The notes beneath the pieces are model-generated. The model worked only from the letters and a program-made list of their open reading frames with translations. It was not told where the DNA came from and ran no database searches. Source: Caldanaerobacter subterraneus (lineage in GTDB: Bacteria > Bacillota > Thermoanaerobacteria > Thermoanaerobacterales > Thermoanaerobacteraceae). Taken from it: a DNA stretch of 42,239 nt. How positions within the stretch are numbered: position 1 is the first letter of the stretch; each line of letters opens with the position of its first letter. Made by a program: the position numbers and the translations under genes. Shown in pieces: positions 12,722-22,304 of the stretch. The DNA lies in NCBI RefSeq assembly GCF_004345675.1, contig NZ_SLWU01000021.1, positions 2,501 to 44,739 of the forward strand, in the 5' to 3' direction.

Positions 12722-15700
12722 TCACTTCCTAAAATGATGATAAGCTAGTTCTAGCAGTCTTTGAGCTATTTCATTTCTTCTACTGAATATTATATTTGGA
12801 ATTGAATTACTGGTAACATATACCTCTTCATCTTCCTTTACACTTTCATAATTATTTTGGGAAGCAGAGGGAGAAATTTTTTCAAGTAAATGTGAAATGA
12901 TATAACTCTTGAGTCGTTTTTGTTTACTCAAACTTTCCCAAAAATCCACTGTTTGTGTTTCCCTACTTATTAATTCTATAATGTCTCTTGTCAAGCTAAC
13001 AAGAAAATCTATTTCTCTATCAGAAAGTTCAGTTACAGGTTTGTTCCCAAATATTTTGTCTTTTAATAAACCAAAAAACGGCATTTCTTTCTTTGGATCG
13101 AACCCGTAAGTTTCTTCTGCCTCTCTTCCTTTCTTTAATTCTTCTCTCATTTTTTCTAATTCAATACACTGCACATCCCAATTTTCTTTGTATTGTTCAA
13201 GAAGCCTTTTCAATCTATCTGAAAACCTCTCATAAAATTCTGGATCTTCTTCCCAATGTTCATCAATATACTCAATAATTGCACTCTGAAGTTCTTGAGC
13301 TCTTGCTTTGCTTGAGTTTTTATGAAGTTTTTCAAGAAATTTATCTTCAAGAAGCGGAGTAGGTGGTATTTTAGGATCTACACCTTGAGAAATCAGATAT
13401 TCTTCAACAATTTCTCTTATTTTGTTACTTGCGTCCTTTACACTGAGCTTACTATCTCTGTATCTATTTCTTGCAGACTCTTTTATGAAGGCAAGAATTT
13501 TTAAATCAGTAACATATTTTAAGGCTGCTGGGTCTGGGAGAACTTCATCCATAGAGCGATTAAATTTTCTTACAAGATTTATAAACTCATTTCTAACTTG
13601 CTCATCAAGAAGAATATCAATACATTCATCTACATTCTGGCGCCAGTTTTTGATGCCATATTTTTCAAAAAACTCTTCAATAAGATTGTGAACATACCTA
13701 AGCTCATCAATGCTCTTTGCTTTGTTCTTTACAACCTCTGAAATTTCCTCAATATCCTCATCTGTGTAAATAGCCAGTGCCTCTTTTAAATGTTTCAAAA
13801 CACCTACATAATCAACAACAAAACCACAAGACTTATTTTTGTATACTCTATTCACTCTTGCAATAGCTTGTAGCAAGTTATGTCCTTTAATCACATTGTC
13901 AAGATACATAACCTGCTCCATAGGTGCATCAAAACCAGTTATTAGCATATTTTGAACAACCAAAATACCCACATTACCGCTGATACCATTTTCATCCACC
14001 TTGTCAAATGGAAGCTTAAAACTTTTGATTATCCTTTCGTGCTCATTGGGGTCAGTATAAGGATGATACTCAGGTGGGTCATTCTGAGCTCCTGAAATAA
14101 CCACACCAACCTCTAACTTTTTCAATGTTTCTAAATCTATTTTTGAATTATTTTCTTTTTCTAACTCAGAAATTTTTTCTTTGAGAGCCTCTTCAAGTGC
14201 TTTTTTATATCTTATTGCAGCAAGACGTGATACTGTAACAACTTGAGCTTTAAATCCATTTGGAAATATATGGGTTATATAGTGCTGTATCATATCTCTT
14301 GCTTTGTCACGGATAACTTCTTCAGCTTCAAGATATGCTCTCCATGTGAATCTTCCCATTATCATTCTTTTTGTATTTTTGTCAGCATCTTTGAAAACAT
14401 CTTCAAACTTTGCATTTGCTGCCTCTTCGTCTGAAAGCTCTGCGCTATGTACTCTTCCTTCATATACAATCTCAACAGTCACACCATCTTCAACTGCCTG
14501 CTTTATGCTGTACTTGTCTATGTAATCGCCAAATGTCATCTCGGTCTTTTCTATAGGTGTACCTGTAAATGCTATTTTTGTTGCATTTGGAAGAGCTTTT
14601 CTTAAATTTGCACCCAGCAGCTTGTATTGGGTTCTGTGTGCTTCATCTATCATTATTAGAATATTAAGTGATGTATTGAGGACAGGAAATTCTCCTTTTA
14701 ATTCCCTCTCTTGAAATTTATGAACCATAGCCATAACAAGTTCGGGTGTGTCAGTTTTTAAAAGTTCTTTAAGCTCCTGAATGCTTCTTGCTAACTTAAC
14801 AGTAAATCCAACACTTCTTGATGTTTCATTTAACTGCTTTTCAAGATCCCTTCTATCTGTGACAAAAACAACTTTGTAGTTTCCAAACTCAGGATTGTGA
14901 TAAAGTTCTCGAACCATAAACATCATTGTCAAAGATTTACCAGAGCCTTGTGTATGCCAAACAATTCCTCCTCTTTCCTCTGGTGTCTTGCCCTCTTTTA
15001 ACCTTTTTATCATCTTCTTTACTGCTCTAAATTGCTGATATCTTGCAACAACCTTTATCATTTTGCTCTTTGGATCTTCTTTAAAGATGGTGAATGTGTG
15101 AAGCAAATCAAGAAGGTTTTCTTTTGAAAGCATCCCATGGATCAAAACCTGCTGGCTTGTTACATTTCCATCTGGATTTACGTCTGACAGTGAAAAAGGA
15201 TAAGGGTCTTTCCACTCAACAAAGTGCTCATACTCTGAGGTTATTGTGCCATACTTTGCAACCTGATTGGATGTAGCTACTAAGAATAAGTTGTACCAAA
15301 AAAGCTTTTCATTTCCCTCAATTGCGCCACGTCTGTTACAATAGCGCATAAGCTGAGTAATTGCTTCAGAAATTGGGTCAGCAATGGCTGGAGATTTGCA
15401 TTCAACCACCACAAGAGGCAAACCATTCACAAAAAGGACTAAATCGGGAACAATATGTTTTTCAGTTCCCGTTATATTCACTTTAAACTGTGATATAGCA
15501 ATGAATGAATTATTGTCCGGATTTTTAAAATCAATAAACTTAACAGTTGGGCTTTTTTCTCCTGTTTTTCTATTTTCAGAAACTGAGGTGTTCTCTAAAA
15601 GCAAGTCGTGGATTTCTTTATTTGCCTCTAAAAGAGAGTTAGCTTGTGGTGTTGTAATTCTTCGAACAACTTCACTTATTTGGTCATCTTCTATCCATGG

Positions 15701-15934
15701 GTTTATTCTCTTTAAAGACTCCCTTAAAACTCCCTCAAGGATTACTTCATTAAAACTTTCTCTGAATTTTTGGTTTTTACCATATTCAGGTTCTAATGAA
15801 GAAGTGAACGATATTATTTCTTTTGTATCCTCAGGGTTATCTTTGTTTTGTCTATAAATCTTCCATCCAAGCCTTTGAAGGTGAAAGAGGAATGAATTTT
15901 CAACATAATGTTCTTCGTCAAGTTTGTAAAACAT
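12722..15934 (-). CDS. hsdR: Type I restriction endonuclease, R (motor/nuclease) subunit
   Basis: The 1070-residue HsdR subunit. The N-terminal PD-(D/E)xK nuclease has D164 and, in VVVECK, E178 and K180. The SF2 translocase follows, with TQGSGKS (residues 328-334), DEAH (430-433), AFTGTPI, and the later GFDAPMEQVMYLDN and QAIARVNRVY motifs. The C-terminal helical region binds the HsdM2S core. All key residues are present, so it should be active with the hsdM and hsdS products. GAAAAGGAGAGTTAAAA precedes the ATG. An IS607 element now separates hsdR from hsdS, so transcription from the hsdM promoter may be reduced or altered. Confidence 0.95.
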   Translation of the reverse strand: MFYKLDEEHYVENSFLFHLQRLGWKIYRQNKDNPEDTKEIISFTSSLEPEYGKNQKFRESFNEVILEGVLRESLKRINPWIEDDQISEVVRRITTPQANSLLEANKEIHDLLLENTSVSENRKTGEKSPTVKFIDFKNPDNNSFIAISQFKVNITGTEKHIVPDLVLFVNGLPLVVVECKSPAIADPISEAITQLMRYCNRRGAIEGNEKLFWYNLFLVATSNQVAKYGTITSEYEHFVEWKDPYPFSLSDVNPDGNVTSQQVLIHGMLSKENLLDLLHTFTIFKEDPKSKMIKVVARYQQFRAVKKMIKRLKEGKTPEERGGIVWHTQGSGKSLTMMFMVRELYHNPEFGNYKVVFVTDRRDLEKQLNETSRSVGFTVKLARSIQELKELLKTDTPELVMAMVHKFQERELKGEFPVLNTSLNILIMIDEAHRTQYKLLGANLRKALPNATKIAFTGTPIEKTEMTFGDYIDKYSIKQAVEDGVTVEIVYEGRVHSAELSDEEAANAKFEDVFKDADKNTKRMIMGRFTWRAYLEAEEVIRDKARDMIQHYITHIFPNGFKAQVVTVSRLAAIRYKKALEEALKEKISELEKENNSKIDLETLKKLEVGVVISGAQNDPPEYHPYTDPNEHERIIKSFKLPFDKVDENGISGNVGILVVQNMLITGFDAPMEQVMYLDNVIKGHNLLQAIARVNRVYKNKSCGFVVDYVGVLKHLKEALAIYTDEDIEEISEVVKNKAKSIDELRYVHNLIEEFFEKYGIKNWRQNVDECIDILLDEQVRNEFINLVRKFNRSMDEVLPDPAALKYVTDLKILAFIKESARNRYRDSKLSVKDASNKIREIVEEYLISQGVDPKIPPTPLLEDKFLEKLHKNSSKARAQELQSAIIEYIDEHWEEDPEFYERFSDRLKRLLEQYKENWDVQCIELEKMREELKKGREAEETYGFDPKKEMPFFGLLKDKIFGNKPVTELSDREIDFLVSLTRDIIELISRETQTVDFWESLSKQKRLKSYIISHLLEKISPSASQNNYESVKEDEEVYVTSNSIPNIIFSRRNEIAQRLLELAYHHFRK

Positions 15935-15936
15935 TT

Positions 15937-16014
15937 TTAACTCTCCTTTTCAAGAAGGAATTTTACTGCCTTTTCAAGTTCCGGCAGCTTCTTTTTGATA
16001 ACCTGGTCAACCAA
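15937..16014 (-). pseudogene. 3' remnant of a gene cut by the IS607 element, probably hepT
   Basis: Directly before hsdR, with the stop two codon-lengths upstream of its ATG, the minus strand encodes a 25-codon tail: LVDQVIKKKLPELEKAVKFL then LEKES and a stop. It has no start of its own and begins at the GC-rich border of the IS607 element. The amphipathic KKLPELEKAVKFLLE pattern resembles the C-terminus of HepT (DUF86/HEPN) toxins, and hepT normally follows an mntA-type gene, which lies just beyond the other end of the element. The identity is inferred; most of the gene, about 80 or more codons, is gone. Confidence 0.5.
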
Positions 16015-16143
16015 ACTGTGCAAAACTGCACAGTATTGGCGGCTGGGGTATTTGTAATCCGCCTTTCAGGCTTTCCCAGCCCCAGCAGGCGGTATTTGGA
16101 AAAGCCATAGCCCCTGTCCCAAGAAACAGGAACTCGCGCCCTC
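16015..16143 (-). ncRNA. Candidate TnpB guide (omega) RNA scaffold
   Basis: The sequence after tnpB is much more GC-rich than its surroundings and highly structured. On the minus strand CCGCCT (16087-16092) pairs with AGGCGG (16059-16064). Inside that loop GCTGGGGCTGGG (16075-16086) can pair with CCCCAGCC (16041-16048) downstream, making a pseudoknot. A CCTGT/ACAGG hairpin and the terminal ACTGTGCA/TGCACAGT palindrome flank it. TnpB omega RNAs derive from this position and have a pseudoknot; the guide would begin in the adjoining host DNA. The assignment is structural inference. Confidence 0.5.
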
Positions 16144-17604
16144 TCAGGTCTTCCCCACTTGCCCTGAAATCAATACCGATTTCAGGACAGACATGTCACG
16201 CAACACCCTGTCAGGGGAAAGTGGCGTTACCACCGCTACCCTGAGAACTCGCCAGAGATTGTGGTTTTTGCCACGACTACCCGCACTTGTTCCATCCAGA
16301 GGCACGGATAGCCTCCCTGGCTCACCCCCAGAGCTTTGTAATATCCCTATCACCCTATCTATCTCTCTGAGTTGCTTTCTCCTCAGATGTTTGTTTTTGA
16401 CTACCTTCCTCACATACTCTTTTAGCTCTTCCAGGTTGTTTACATCAAGCTTACTGAGAAGTAGCATATAATTGTGCGGTACCCTTTCTCTCAAGCCAAG
16501 TCCTCTTCGCGCTATTACATACGCTGCAGCTACATCCTTTGTCACCATAAACTGCGGTGCATACTTTAAAATTCCTATCACAGAAGTGTATGCAGGGTCT
16601 ACTTCTATAACCTCTATCCCTTCTCGCTTTGCTAAAAGTTTTACCTTCTCCAAAAGTGACCTGTACCCAAAATAGTGTCTTATCCGTCTTGATTTTCTGC
16701 CTGAAAAGTCTCCTCTTCTGCCCCTGTCCTGTATGCTAAGGCTCTCAATCACTATGGCTTTTTGCTTCTCTTTCGCCATTCGTACTATCATGTGTGCATA
16801 CTGCCACCTGTAATACTCCCTTTTTTCAAAGCTCCCACTCTCAAGCTCTGGCATTGGTATCGCACCATATCCCAGAAACTGTCCGTGCTCATCCATTTCT
16901 ACCCATGCAATATTCTTTGGATATGCGTTAGTGTCTATCCCTATAACCCCATTCGCTTTTGTTATTGCAGGCTGTGGGAAAACTTCTTCAATTGCAAAGT
17001 AGGCATATACTACACCACTTTTAAGTTTCAGCTGGACAGAGTAGGGTTCTCCAGAAGTACTTATCGCCTGCAGCAGTTGATTCCTGTCTGTGTACGTTCC
17101 GTCTTTCATCTTCCATCCAGGCTGTATTCTCGCATATACGTACTCCCTTTCTCCTACGTTGATTCTAAGTCTTGTACAATCTTCATCTGTCTCAATCCTT
17201 GTATTGAGATTCCCCTTCTTGCTCCTGTCTCCTCTTGAGTACAGATTCCCCTTCCTTTTCTCCTGCCACTCCCGTTGTAGTTTCCTATATACCTTGCCGT
17301 TTATGTGTCGCCTCTTTAGTTTTTCAAAAAGCTGCCTACCACCAAAAATGACCTTTTCAGGATTTTCTCCTCTTTCTTTGCATGAGGTCAAAATGCTCTT
17401 TGCTTTCATTATTGCATCATCAACGTATCGGGAATTTAGATTAAAAATTCCTTGCAGCTCTCTTTTGAGTTCATTTCTTTTATGCCCTTCAAGTAACCTC
17501 TTGTATGCATACCTCATGCATGATGACCATCTTCTCATAAGGTCCAGGACTTTTTGCTTATCTTGGCTGCTGTCAAAAGTTAGCTTGGCTTGAACTGTTA
17601 CCAT
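16144..17604 (-). CDS. tnpB: IS607-type TnpB, RNA-guided RuvC nuclease
   Basis: The TnpB-like protein has about 486 residues from the ATG at 17604, which has GAGGTG nine bases upstream (an ATG at 17628 is possible). The split RuvC site is complete: Asp in VIGIDTNAY (about 224), Glu in AIVIESLS (about 287) and Asp in VTKDVAAAYVIARR (about 357). The usual CxxC...CxxC zinc ribbon between the second and third motifs is missing. The basic N-terminal half should bind RNA and target DNA, and a Gly/Ser-rich tail follows RuvC-III. TnpB proteins cut DNA guided by omega RNA made from the element end, which helps retain the element. It overlaps the tnpA 3' end by 32 bases. Confidence 0.85.
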   Translation of the reverse strand: MVTVQAKLTFDSSQDKQKVLDLMRRWSSCMRYAYKRLLEGHKRNELKRELQGIFNLNSRYVDDAIMKAKSILTSCKERGENPEKVIFGGRQLFEKLKRRHINGKVYRKLQREWQEKRKGNLYSRGDRSKKGNLNTRIETDEDCTRLRINVGEREYVYARIQPGWKMKDGTYTDRNQLLQAISTSGEPYSVQLKLKSGVVYAYFAIEEVFPQPAITKANGVIGIDTNAYPKNIAWVEMDEHGQFLGYGAIPMPELESGSFEKREYYRWQYAHMIVRMAKEKQKAIVIESLSIQDRGRRGDFSGRKSRRIRHYFGYRSLLEKVKLLAKREGIEVIEVDPAYTSVIGILKYAPQFMVTKDVAAAYVIARRGLGLRERVPHNYMLLLSKLDVNNLEELKEYVRKVVKNKHLRRKQLREIDRVIGILQSSGGEPGRLSVPLDGTSAGSRGKNHNLWRVLRVAVVTPLSPDRVLRDMSVLKSVLISGQVGKT

Positions 17605-18178
17605 GCTCTTTGGCACCTCTTTGCCCATAAATCCTTGCTGCAAAAGATGTTACTATTGCTATTAAGTCCTCTGCCAGTTCTCTGTTAATTTCTTCTTCGT
17701 TTTCTCTGCCATTTAACACTACAAGTTCTACCCCAAAACTCTCCATGAAAAACTTAAGATATTCAAATCCAAACCTTGCAAGTCTGTCAGGATACTCCAC
17801 TACAACTTTTTCAACTTCTCCTCTCTTAATCTTGTTCAAAAGTTTCAACAGTCCCCTTCTGTTCTCGTTTATTCCACTTGCTATCTCAAATATAGTCTCA
17901 TACTGCCACCCCTGAGAATTGGCATATTCTTCAAGTCTTCTAATTTGGTTTTTAAGGTACTCTTCTTGCTTTTTTGTTGATACCCTTGCATACAAAACAA
18001 CGGTTGGCTTTGGTTTTTCTTCTATCATACCCAGTAGTTTTTCTATATCTTCTTTTTTATACCTTCTTCTACCCTTTGGGGTTCTAACAGGGGTAATTAA
18101 CCCCTCTTTCTCCCAGTTTATAAGTGTCCTTCGACTGATTGAGTATATTTCTTTTACTTTTTGCATACTTAATAACAC
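17573..18178 (-). CDS. tnpA: IS607-family serine recombinase TnpA
   Basis: The 201-residue recombinase has an N-terminal MerR-type helix-turn-helix (SISRRTLINWEKEGLITPVR, about residues 13-32) and a serine recombinase catalytic domain. YARVSTKKQ holds the nucleophile Ser67; EYPDRLARFGFEYL and the downstream arginines complete the site. The order DNA-binding then catalytic domain is specific to IS607 transposases. The GTG at 18178 follows AGGTGATGATGG; an ATG at 18166 is an alternative. It looks intact, so the element may still move. The last codons overlap tnpB. Confidence 0.9.
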   Translation of the reverse strand: MLLSMQKVKEIYSISRRTLINWEKEGLITPVRTPKGRRRYKKEDIEKLLGMIEEKPKPTVVLYARVSTKKQEEYLKNQIRRLEEYANSQGWQYETIFEIASGINENRRGLLKLLNKIKRGEVEKVVVEYPDRLARFGFEYLKFFMESFGVELVVLNGRENEEEINRELAEDLIAIVTSFAARIYGQRGAKEHGNSSSQANF

Positions 18179-18188
18179 CCATCATCAC

Positions 18189-18512
18189 CTAATTAAAATT
18201 ATACTCTTTTGCATAACTATTTTCAACTGTTGCAACCTCCTCCATTATGAAAGGCTTTAGACGTGGATTTATAGCTGATTTAATCACAAGGTCAACCTTT
18301 TTACCAAAAAGTTCTTCAAGGTAGAATTTCAAATTCATATAATTATCGAAAGTTTTGTAACCCTCTTTAAAATCAACAATGATATCTACATCACTATCTT
18401 TTCTTTGTTCGCCTCTTGCATAGGAGCCAAAGATAGCAATTTCAATTACTCCGAACTTTTCCACTAAATAATTTTTTCGTTCTTGTAGAATTACTTGTAT
18501 ATCACTGTTCAT
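18189..18512 (-). CDS. mntA: MntA-type minimal nucleotidyltransferase, probable antitoxin
   Basis: The 107-residue protein carries IAIFGSYARGEQRKDSDVDI followed by IVDF, the GSYxR and DxD metal site of minimal nucleotidyltransferases. In HEPN/MNT pairs this protein AMPylates the HepT RNase toxin and silences it. The ATG overlaps the hsdS stop as ATGA, so it belongs to the hsd operon. The end after LKPFIMEEVATVE is unusual (NSYAKEYNFN) and lies against the IS607 element, which may have altered it. A toxin gene is not intact next to it. Confidence 0.8.
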   Translation of the reverse strand: MNSDIQVILQERKNYLVEKFGVIEIAIFGSYARGEQRKDSDVDIIVDFKEGYKTFDNYMNLKFYLEELFGKKVDLVIKSAINPRLKPFIMEEVATVENSYAKEYNFN

Positions 18513-19810
18513 TTTTCTTCCTCCTCAATAAGGTGGTTTACCCTGACTTTGCCTGTTAGCAAATCTTCCATTAAGCCTTTTTTGATTCTTTCAAGTTTTT
18601 CCTTATAGGCTTGCTCTTTCTCTATGACTTCATCTATTTGAGATAAAATTGAAGCTATGCGTTGTTGTTCGGGAAGAGGTGGAAGAGGAATTAAAATTTC
18701 CTTAAAGGTTTCTCTCGTAATTGTATTAAATACATTTCCATATGCTAATGATAAAAATGAAGTAATAAAATGTTTTAAAGCATAATATAGGAAATCATTG
18801 GAGAGCTTCATTTTATCTTTTGCATCAAGGCCGTAGCATGACTGATTGAAAGCCATATCCGCCCCAAGTTGTGCTAACACACCTACAGTACCGCGTGCAG
18901 ATATTATCAACATACCTTTTTTAAGTAGCTTTGTTGCACTTTGCTTTAAACCTAATTCAGTTATGTATTTTGAACTTGAGAAAACCCATCTTTTGCCTAT
19001 ATTAAAATCTTCTACAGATAGCCAAGGTATACTTCCATTCCAAAACTCGGGCCTTGCTGTGCTTGGAGTTCCTCCATTAATTAAGTTGACATGTCCGTAG
19101 ACATCCACCACTTCCCACTCCTCTGGAATCCTCCCAAGCGGTGAGTCCTTGAATTTATCAATATTCTCATCTCTCAACCTCCACCTCTCACTTTCACCCT
19201 CACCCTCATTTACCACTCCCTTAGTAAGCAAATCTTGCATCAAACCTTGCTTTATGCGTTTATACTTTTCTATAATAGCGTCAGTTTTTTCAATTGCATT
19301 ATCAATTGTCTCAAGTATTTCTGCGATTTTACGTTGTTCGGGAAGAGGGGGAAGTAGAAAAGATAATTTATTCACAAAAACATTGGGCCTTACTTCTAAT
19401 ATTGTAGTTTGATTTGCGAGTCTTAATAGTTCATTCTTTTTGGTTGTTAGAACAAAATAAAGAAATAAGTTAAAAACTTCGTCATTTTTTAGCTCCATTC
19501 CTGCTATCCCCTGTTTAGTTGCAAGATCAACCTCTGCAATTCCAACCACTCCAATTGTTGCTCCAAAAGACAATATGATACTTCCCTTTCTCCATATTTT
19601 AGCATTTGAGTGTTTGAGTCCTTTTTTAGTTAATTTTTCCTTGGTATCGTAAATCCTTTTCTTAATATCCTCTATAACCACCCAAGGAATATCACCATCG
19701 AAATTAGTTTTATCTGAACGAGGAGGAGTTCCACCATCTCCTATTCGTTCTATAACCTCCCCTAACCTTACTCTTTTCCATCCATCAGGCAATTTAACAT
19801 TTTCACTCAT
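18509..19810 (-). CDS. hsdS: Type I restriction-modification specificity subunit
   Basis: HsdS determines the DNA sequence recognised. It has the standard duplicated plan in about 433 residues. TRD1 begins [20 protein letters not shown] and ends at [20 protein letters not shown] with a helical spacer; TRD2 begins [19 protein letters not shown] and ends [20 protein letters not shown] with a second helix. The two LPPLPEQ repeats mark the conserved regions. The ATG at 19810 overlaps the hsdM stop within ATGAGTGA, a coupling arrangement; the longer upstream frame is inside hsdM. The target cannot be read from sequence. Confidence 0.93.
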
Positions 19811-22244
19811 AGCAATATCCCAGCCTTTGTAAAAATTCCTCCAATTTTTTGATTTCTTCACCTCTTTCAGCTTTCAAGTCTTGCAAAGAAACTTTGTATT
19901 TATCCCAAAGCTTTTCAAAAATCTTTATCAGTTCTTTTTTCTCTGCATTTAAGTACTTTTCAAGTTGATTGCTAATTAATTCAAAGAACTTTTCGAGCAA
20001 AAGCTCTTTTGCTTCTTCTTCGGTAATAGATTCAATCTTTTCATCAATCTTATTTTCAATTTCCTTTTGCTTTCTGCCTATCTCACTTCTCACCTTTTTA
20101 ATTTCCTTTTCTTTTTGAGCAATATTTTCTAACAAATCTTCCCATTTTCTTGCTTCCCTTCTTGCAGCCTCGCTGTCTTTTGATCTTAAATCTTTAACCA
20201 AGTCCTTCAGAAACTCTTTGACCTTGCTTGCAGTTTTATCTCCCTGCTGCTCTTCATCCCAATCTTCAACCTCTTCTAAAAGCTCACTTAAATCTGCTTC
20301 AAGTTCTGCAAGCCTGCTTTCAAGTTCTTCAATCTCTTCTACATCTTCTTTAAAATATTTTTCCTTAATCCTTTCTCTTTCAACCAAATTCCTATTCCAA
20401 CCAGCAGAAACTATACTTTTAAAATCATAAACAAGTTCTTCCCACCAATTTGCAAATATGCCCGCTATTTTGAACTCATCAAACGTTCCAATTGGCAAGA
20501 GACTTTCTTTCAACTTTTTCAAAGCTTCATTTCTAAACTTCCAAAGATTATTTCTGCCAAAAAACTGTTCAATTTCAGGCTTTATACTTTGCCACCAATC
20601 CAAAAGTTTTTCCCTGTGTTTTGTTATGGTAATTTTTACTTCTTCAGAGTTTTCAATTAACTCTCTAATTTGATTCTTATCGGTAATGTCTTTCTTAAAT
20701 TCTAAATAGTCTGCACTTTTCTCTGTTAGTAAAATATCATAACTCAACTTAAATTTTTTAAATTGTTCTGCATAAAGTGATACTTCTTTTTTGGGTATAC
20801 CACCAAAAAGATGTGCATGAACATCTTCAATTTCTGGATCTGGAGAATTATCCACATACCGTCTGATATTTAGGTTAAAATCATTTTCTTCTATTTCTTT
20901 TATATCAACTAGCCTTGAGTATTTAGGTATTTCTTTTTTCTCCTCAAATACTGTGACTATTTTTTCTATATCCTCCGGTCTTAAAAAGTTTTGATTTCTA
21001 CCTTCTCCGTATTCTCTATCTGCATTTATGAACAAAATCTTATTTTTTAAATGTTCTGGCTTGTTTTTATTAATCACAATAATACAAGCTGGTATTCCAG
21101 TGTTGTAGAAAAGCTTCGGCGGCAGTCCTATTATTGCCTCAATTAGATCATCTCTTACAATCCCTTCCCTTATAACCTTTTCCTGTCCACCTCTGAACAA
21201 AACTCCATGGGGCATAACTGTTGCCATTACTCCGTCATCTTTCAGGCTTGCAATCATGTGCTGCAAAAACATAAGGTCTGCCTTTTTCCCATTCTCAGGA
21301 GTAAAGCCATATTTAAATCTTTCTTCAAACTGCATATTTGCGCGGGTATAGTTTTCTGAAAAAGGTGGATTGGCTAATATTCTATCAAACCTTTTTATGT
21401 ACCCATTTTCCAAAAACATGGGAGTTGTCAACACATCTTCATTTTCTATGTGTGCGTCATTAATGCCGTGCAAAATCATATTCATTTTGCATATAGACCA
21501 TGTCAAACCGTTGAGTTCTTGTCCATAAAGAGCTAAGTTTCTTGGGTTTTGTCCTTGTTCCTCAATATAGTGGAATGCCTCAATCAAAAAACCACCAGAG
21601 CCAACAGTTGGGTCATAAATTGACATGCCCTCACGGGGCTTAACTAACCTTACCATCAATTTTTTAACATGTGATGGTGTGTAAAATTCTCCTCCTTTTT
21701 TACCAGCTGAATCGGCAAATTCCTTTAGCAAATACTCATAAGCAGCACCAAGCAGATCAGGAAATTCAAAGTTTGAAGGTGTTAGTTTATACTTGTTGAA
21801 ATGGTTAATAAGGTCAATAAGTTGCTGATCTTTGAGTCGGGTTTTTCCCTTTACTGCGTTAAAATCTATGTGTTTCAAAACTCCATCAAGCTCTGAATTT
21901 GCTTCCTCTAAAGCGCTCAGAGCTTTATTTAGCTGATTTCCAACATCTTCTTTTAATTTCAAAATATTTCCCCATCTTGCCTTTTCAGGGACAAAAAAGG
22001 CATCACCATAAGAACTTGGATCTTCTAAAAGCTCTTGAAGTTGCTTTTCAGAAAATCCCATAGTTTTAAATCTATCTCTTAATTCCTGCCTTTTTTCTTC
22101 AAAAACATCTGATGTATATTTTAGAAAAAGCATACCAAATATGTATTCTTTATACTCAGAGGCATCCATCTTACCTCTGAGTATATCAGCAGCTTTAAAG
22201 AGGTGGGTTTCAAGTTGCCTTAAAGTTATCTTGTTGTTATTCAT
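19803..22244 (-). CDS. hsdM: Type I restriction-modification methyltransferase subunit with long C-terminal extension
   Basis: The 813-residue HsdM is an N6-adenine methyltransferase. An N-terminal HsdM helical domain ([20 protein letters not shown]) precedes the catalytic domain, with [10 protein letters not shown] motif DPTVGSGGF (about 211-219) and catalytic NPPF (about 292-295). Typical HsdM proteins have about 500 residues. Here roughly 300 more residues form a charged helical extension rich in Glu and Lys, with heptad-like stretches such as [33 protein letters not shown] precedes the ATG. It is the first gene of the operon, with a good promoter at 22305-22333. Confidence 0.93.
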
Positions 22245-22304
22245 GATTGTACCTCCCGAACTTAAGTCAATCAATATTCCTTCCCCTAAGTTTAATCTTT
22301 ACAT

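What the first reader, a model, noticed from the sequence alone, without database searches (positions are those of the whole stretch)
16015..16143. GC-rich pseudoknot at the tnpB 3' flank, a candidate omega RNA
In an AT-rich genome this stretch is strongly structured. A CCGCCT/AGGCGG stem has a loop with a doubled GCTGGG, which can pair in two registers with CCCCAGCC just outside the stem. A perfect ACTGTGCA/TGCACAGT palindrome sits exactly where the host frame begins. TnpB guide RNAs come from this position and contain a pseudoknot, and the alternative registers might be a regulatory feature. The current guide would read from hsdR-leader DNA.
Basis: partly seen in the sequence, partly recalled or inferred. 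Interest (0 to 1): 0.6.

Follow-up and report, generated by a model that had tools for sequence, protein, structure and literature searches.

The report
Knotted guide RNA of a transposon
The structured stretch is the 3' part of a guide RNA made from the end of a mobile element's nuclease gene; its knotted fold has been kept by matching mutations across many heat-loving bacteria, and copies of the knot alone, without the nuclease, survive in front of ordinary genes.

Summary
The stretch is real and is the 3' half of a ~260-310 nt omega (guide) RNA on the minus (tnpB-sense) strand of an intact IS607 element (16002-18235). Three mutually crossing helices form its core. P (GCUGGGG/CCCCAGC) has them at 3-4 of 7 pairs. 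S (CCGCC/GGCGG) has two independent compensatory changes in distant taxa. G-U cells far outnumber A-C cells, which fixes the strand. The two-register idea fails: the second GCTGGG is the 3' strand of H. The ACTGTGCA palindrome lies inside the element; host DNA starts at 16001, and the guide there reads hepT, not the hsdR leader. TnpB keeps its RuvC D-E-D but has no zinc ribbon; its last ~55 codons overlap the RNA and show raised synonymous-site conservation. Elements insert at (A)GGAGG, a Shine-Dalgarno sequence, usually 4-11 nt before a start codon. No Rfam family matches. Unexpectedly, the H/S/P core also occurs alone in front of host genes (uxuA/glycosidase, priA, AMMECR1, comEC, others), even in genomes where the TnpB search found nothing. 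The guide-RNA role is inferred, not shown by RNA or cleavage data.

The parts
16002..18235 (-). complete IS607-type element; right end ..TTGACCAGG at 16002, left end starts TTGCAACAG at 18235, GG overlap dinucleotide at both junctions
   Evidence: junctions aligned over 36-57 copies; IS607 overlap dinucleotide GG (PMC4058570); one copy, L111, has AG at both ends
17573..18178 (-). tnpA, IS607-family serine recombinase
   Evidence: NCBIfam NF033518 232 bits, Pfam Resolvase and MerR
16144..17643 (-). tnpB, RuvC nuclease with D237, E300, D370 but no Cys4 zinc ribbon; residues 438-499 disordered in the model and overlapping the RNA
   Evidence: TIGR01765 and TIGR01766; invariant residues; AF2 + Foldseek to Cas12f / ISFba1 TnpB / ISDra2 TnpB
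16002..16262 (-). omega RNA scaffold (minimum extent; synonymous constraint begins about 16310-16350)
   Evidence: z -4.3; 20 of 56 pairs with both-sided changes against 5.6 in shuffles; fourfold-site identity 0.57 rising to 0.73-0.87 from codon 445 on
16149..16221 (-). long-range helix CUUUCCCC (16221-16214) / GGGGAAG (16156-16150) enclosing hairpin 16161-16188
   Evidence: helices 1 and 2: 2 and 5 pairs with both-sided changes
16113..16130 (-). hairpin B, CCUGU/ACAGG
   Evidence: helix 3; window UA against CG in most copies
16069..16106 (-). helix H: GGCUUUUCC (16106-16098) with GGGAAAGCC (16077-16069)
   Evidence: 9/9 pairs with both-sided changes; 103 cells against 28.7 in shuffles
16059..16092 (-). 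helix S: CCGCC (16092-16088) with GGCGG (16063-16059)
   Evidence: 99.6% paired; C-G to U-A in L261 and C-G to G-C in L269
16042..16086 (-). helix P: GCUGGGG (16086-16080) with CCCCAGC (16048-16042)
   Evidence: 98.8% paired, 3 pairs and 5 cells both-sided, 0/500 shuffles; 4 pairs and 7 cells
16012..16038 (-). right-end hairpin with the ACTGTGCA/TGCACAGT palindrome; probably also carries the TnpA end repeat ACAGTT
   Evidence: helix 7: 5 pairs with both-sided changes plus many G-U intermediates; ACAGTT also at the left end
16002..16005 (-). scaffold end CAGG, possible guide-adjacent pseudoknot with CCUG 16215-16212
   Evidence: predicted by RNAalifold; nearly invariant, so not tested; shares two bases with the helix at 16214-16221
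15982..16001 (-). inferred guide TTATCAAAAAGAAGCTGCCG
   Evidence: first 20 nt after the right end; identical in the uninterrupted hepT of L236, preceded there by GGGAGG
15937..16001 (-). remaining 3' end of hepT (VIKKKLPELEKAVKFLLEKES*)
   Evidence: intact NTase-hepT-hsdR order in L236; HepT-like PF01934

Best explanation
The stretch is the 3' half of the omega RNA of an IS607-group TnpB. The 3' part of the tnpB transcript (minus strand, about 16310/16262 to 16002) folds into a scaffold whose core is three mutually crossing helices (H, S, P), followed by the right-end hairpin and ACCAGG; host sequence beyond the right end becomes the guide. TnpB binds this RNA and would cut DNA matching the guide next to a GGAGG motif, i.e. 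the uninterrupted allele, here hepT beside GGGAGG, so that repair restores the element after TnpA excision. Shown: element, ends, strand, fold, synonymous constraint inside tnpB, intact RuvC residues, matching empty hepT site in relatives. Inferred: transcription, binding, cleavage, the motif being the TAM, and retention of the element.
For: RNA lies directly 3' of tnpB in every full-length TnpB locus of this group that the model hit, from Thermoanaerobacter to Aquificales. Covariation: 20 pairs / 54 cells both-sided against 5.6 / 15.1 in shuffles on A1; H 9/9, P 3-4/7, S two compensatory changes. Strand: 57 G-U against 4 A-C cells in H, 7 against 1 in P. Synonymous sites conserved where RNA and ORF overlap. 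Sequence conservation stops at the right end. Left flank GGAGG in nearly all of 36 copies, like the AGGAG/GAGGG TAMs measured for other IS607 TnpBs (PMC11061315). TnpB model matches Cas12f, ISFba1 and ISDra2 TnpB; D-E-D invariant. Uninterrupted hepT carries the motif and a 25-nt identical target.
Against: No RNA or biochemical data. No Rfam guide-RNA family matches. TnpB lacks the zinc ribbon that ISDra2 TnpB and Cas12f have in the TNB domain (PMC10097598). The guide-adjacent pseudoknot of known TnpB/Cas12 RNAs is only a weak, untestable candidate here. The three crossing helices leave a 4-nt linker across H, so all three may not be fully formed at once. The core also exists without TnpB, so covariation alone does not prove a TnpB-bound role.
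Confidence: 0.85

Rival explanations
1. The conserved structure is mainly a leader RNA for whatever gene lies downstream (mRNA stabiliser or translation control next to a Shine-Dalgarno-like right end), and guide function is secondary or lost.
For: Elements sit 4-11 nt before a start codon in 36 of 50 distinct sites; solitary cores end just before start codons and are structured in genomes with no TnpB found.
Against: In element copies the RNA is tied to tnpB and its 5' half lies inside tnpB; the solitary copies lack that half. The window copy is not in front of a start codon.
Confidence: 0.08
2. The inverted repeats are DNA sites for TnpA rather than RNA structure.
For: The right-end palindrome shares ACAGTT with the left end; IS607 ends carry short transposase repeats (PMC4058570).
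Against: H, S, P and the helices inside tnpB are not repeats of end motifs; G-U far exceeds A-C, which only RNA of this strand explains; probably true only of the terminal hairpin, in addition to RNA pairing.
Confidence: 0.04
3. Regulatory switch between two pseudoknot registers.
For: Both registers pair in the window sequence.
Against: Second register not kept: 78.8% paired against 78.9% shuffled; its bases belong to H, which covaries at every pair.
Confidence: 0.03

Closest known systems
IS607 TnpB with RAGATH-18-derived reRNA (ISFba1; PMC11061315)
   Same: IS607 element, guide RNA 3' of tnpB, two pseudoknots, purine-rich AGGAG/GAGGG TAM, RuvC D-E-D; our TnpB model matches its structure 8iaz
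   Different: no RAGATH-18 match; our RNA overlaps tnpB by ~120-190 nt whereas that reRNA is said to lie wholly outside the gene; TnpB longer and without zinc ribbon
ISDra2 TnpB omega RNA (PMC8612924, PMC10097598)
   Same: RNA from the tnpB 3' end up to the right end, pseudoknot, guide from flanking host DNA
   Different: IS200/IS605 with Y1 transposase; different scaffold; zinc finger present; guide-adjacent pseudoknot established there only
Rfam IS605-orfB-I (RF03065)
   Same: structured RNA associated with tnpB (orfB)
   Different: window does not match it at gathering score or at E up to 10
TldR guide RNAs (exapted TnpB relatives)
   Same: guide-RNA-like elements kept outside transposons
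   Different: TldR is still encoded with its RNA; the solitary cores here have no TnpB relative beside them (known from memory and abstract only)

Membership tests
IS607 transposon | IS607-family serine recombinase TnpA with MerR-like N-terminus | tested here: met
   NF033518 232 bits, cut-off 110
IS607 transposon | GG overlap dinucleotide at both junctions, no target duplication | tested here: met
   36 aligned copies; AG/AG in L111; GG stated in PMC4058570
TnpB omega RNA | structured RNA of tnpB sense strand ending at the transposon right end | tested here: met
TnpB omega RNA | pseudoknot supported by covariation | tested here: met
   H x P and H x S crossings
TnpB omega RNA | pseudoknot formed by the nucleotides next to the guide | tested here: inconclusive
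   CCUG/CAGG nearly invariant
TnpB omega RNA | bound by TnpB and guiding DNA cleavage | not testable with these tools
   needs biochemistry
RNA-guided TnpB nuclease | RuvC D-E-D | tested here: met
   D237 and E300 invariant in 25 sequences; D370 invariant in 16
RNA-guided TnpB nuclease | CxxC-CxxC zinc ribbon in the TNB domain (present in ISDra2 TnpB, Cas12f) | tested here: not met
   PAYTSVIG..KDVAAAY with no Cys in 16 close homologues; Pfam TNB half matched, 18.5 bits, under cut-off. Treated as a variant, not as exclusion: TIGR01766 is over its cut-off, NF040570 guided_TnpB is under its cut-off (47 of 100)
RAGATH-18 reRNA | match to the Rfam covariance model | tested here: not met
   no match among all Rfam families
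IS605-orfB-I RNA | match to RF03065 | tested here: not met

The most novel reading that the evidence does not exclude
The H/S/P pseudoknot core of this omega RNA has repeatedly been kept on its own, without TnpB, as a structured leader just upstream of host genes (uxuA/glycoside hydrolase in 11 of 12 genomes of the second genus, and priA, AMMECR1, histidine phosphatase, comEC, radA, thioredoxin-like genes elsewhere). Because the elements insert at Shine-Dalgarno sequences, each insertion places the knot in a 5' leader, where it may act as an mRNA-stabilising or translation-controlling element, for instance by blocking RNase J.
Probability: 0.4. Interest if true: 0.75.

Novelty: new variant of a known kind. 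Interest (0 to 1): 0.6.

Why it matters
It gives a covariation-supported guide RNA, absent from Rfam, for a thermophile TnpB group that lacks the zinc ribbon, and a motif (GGAGG) and guide to test. Targeting Shine-Dalgarno sequences explains why the elements sit just upstream of genes in the same orientation. If the solitary cores are functional, they would be a route by which transposon guide RNAs become host leader RNAs.

Tried and rejected
Second pseudoknot register: rejected. Plus-strand RNA: folds well but the G-U to A-C ratio points to the minus strand. Rfam membership: none. Naive empty site made by joining the two flanks: wrong; relatives carry a whole hepT between the flanks, so hepT lost about 280 bp beside the left end. 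My early naming of the two genera was swapped and corrected after (G001 contig length equals Thermoanaerobacter wiegelii NC_015958.1). A regex count of CCTGA was too strict and is not used as evidence. Paper searches found no report of IS607/TnpB insertion at Shine-Dalgarno sequences or of solitary omega-RNA cores; the library is open-access only. A9-based model is of moderate quality (pLDDT 72), so only the family of folds is claimed.

Full report
WHAT IS THERE. On the minus strand, 18235-16002 is a complete IS607-type element: tnpA (18178-17573; NF033518), tnpB (17643-16144; TIGR01765 and TIGR01766 over cut-off) and a right end finishing ..TTGACCAGG at 16002. The own genome holds 16 copies of the right-end region and ten genomes of the genus hold 57 more or less. 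Aligned copies show conservation stopping exactly after ACCAGG, and a left junction GGAGG|T....ACAGTT. The GG is the overlap dinucleotide known for IS607 (PMC4058570); in copy L111 both ends have AG instead, as expected of a recombinase core.

THE RNA. An alignment of 54 genus copies (A1) tested against a named structure gives 20 pairs and 54 cells with both-sided changes against 5.6 and 15.1 in column shuffles, 0 of 500 shuffles reaching either. With the second genus and solitary copies added (A5, 59 sequences), helix H varies on both sides at all nine pairs, P at three of seven, S not at all. With named relatives from Caldicoprobacter, Thermosediminibacteraceae, Caldisericum and Aquificales (alignment A8, one local gap in the S region corrected by hand), H has 103 both-sided cells against 28.7 shuffled, P 7 against 1.7, and S two (C-G to U-A in L261, C-G to G-C in L269) against 0.03. 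Two events for S is thin but independent. Shuffles do not keep relatedness, so the counts are not probabilities; the slid controls (42-62% paired or less) and the variety of H sequences make chance unlikely.

The order is H5' S5' P5' H3' S3' P3', so all three helices cross one another. The linker between H3' and S3' is short (about 4 nt), so full simultaneous formation of H and S is not certain. The doubled GCTGGG is accounted for: the first copy is P5', the second is the 3' strand of H. Register 2 does no better than shuffles.

STRAND AND EXTENT. Both strands fold well by energy. In H and P, cells with G-U on the minus strand number 64, with A-C 5; A-C is what G-U of the other strand would look like. 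Fourfold-degenerate sites in tnpB are identical in about 0.44-0.67 of comparisons up to codon 430 and 0.73-0.87 from codon 445 on, and residues 438-499 are predicted disordered. The RNA thus extends ~120 nt or more into the ORF.

TNPB. D237, E300 and D370 are kept. There is no cysteine ribbon between PAYTSVIG and KDVAAAY. Profile search and fold search give Cas12f, TnpB and Cas12k.

WHERE IT INSERTS. In 36 copies with a readable left junction the flank is GGAGG almost without exception, usually AGGAGG. Of 50 distinct sites, 36 have an ORF start 4-11 nt after the right end, against 10% at random positions and 21 of 90 after any GGAGG in the window; in other taxa 20 of 24. So the elements land between Shine-Dalgarno and start codon, with ACCAGG giving back AGG. 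Whether TnpA choice, TnpB TAM or both set this is not resolved; measured TAMs of other IS607 TnpBs are AGGAG or GAGGG. The window copy is atypical: its right flank is inside hepT (CTGGGAGG|TTATC..), its left flank the end of the nucleotidyltransferase gene, and about 280 bp of hepT between them are gone. Four genomes keep NTase-HepT-hsdR uninterrupted with a 25-nt identical target beside GGGAGG.

HOW IT MOST LIKELY WORKS. As an omega RNA: TnpB bound to this scaffold, guide from 16001 on, cutting the uninterrupted allele. Transcription, binding and cleavage are inferred from the TnpB literature (PMC8612924, PMC10097598, PMC11061315), not shown.

SOLITARY CORES. The covariance model also hit cores with no TnpB nearby: between uxuA and a family-2 glycoside hydrolase in 11 genomes of the second genus, and before priA, AMMECR1, histidine phosphatase, comEC, radA and a thioredoxin-like gene in other phylum members. 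H and the terminal hairpin differ in sequence but pair (mean z -3.6 and -4.9; several individual H values are weak), while CCGCC/GGCGG and P stay. G020 has no TnpB of this family, though other TIGR01766 proteins; G073 and G279 have none at all by TIGR01766. These copies lack the 5' half and the ACCAGG end, which speaks against a guide role and for a leader role; this is inference, and slow decay of old insertions is not excluded without a neutral control.

NOVELTY. A new variant of a known kind: an omega RNA outside Rfam with a zinc-ribbon-less TnpB. The solitary cores are the more surprising part and deserve their own test.

Noticed in passing
L219 3983-4125 and L218, L220-L227, L229: H/S/P core without TnpB between uxuA and a glycoside hydrolase family 2 gene in 11 of 12 genomes of the second genus (Caldicellulosiruptor-like).
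   Followed up: partly
L333-L341: Solitary cores just upstream of priA, AMMECR1, histidine phosphatase, comEC, radA and thioredoxin-like genes; none has TnpB within about 2.5 kb.
   Followed up: partly
window 15937-16001 and 18236-18512: The nucleotidyltransferase-HepT toxin-antitoxin-like pair inside the type I restriction locus is broken: most of hepT is missing and the nucleotidyltransferase has a new C-terminus.
   Followed up: yes
L217 (G014), also L215, L216: Elements with a right end that lacks the whole H/S/P core; in G014 the adjacent tnpB is still open.
   Followed up: no
window 12722-22274: The junction region of this restriction locus is 97% identical to genomes of another family in the class, and window TnpB is 90% identical to a copy there against 63-68% to copies in its own genome, suggesting horizontal exchange.
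   Followed up: partly
L111: Copy with AG instead of GG at both junctions, a natural change of the recombinase overlap dinucleotide.
   Followed up: no
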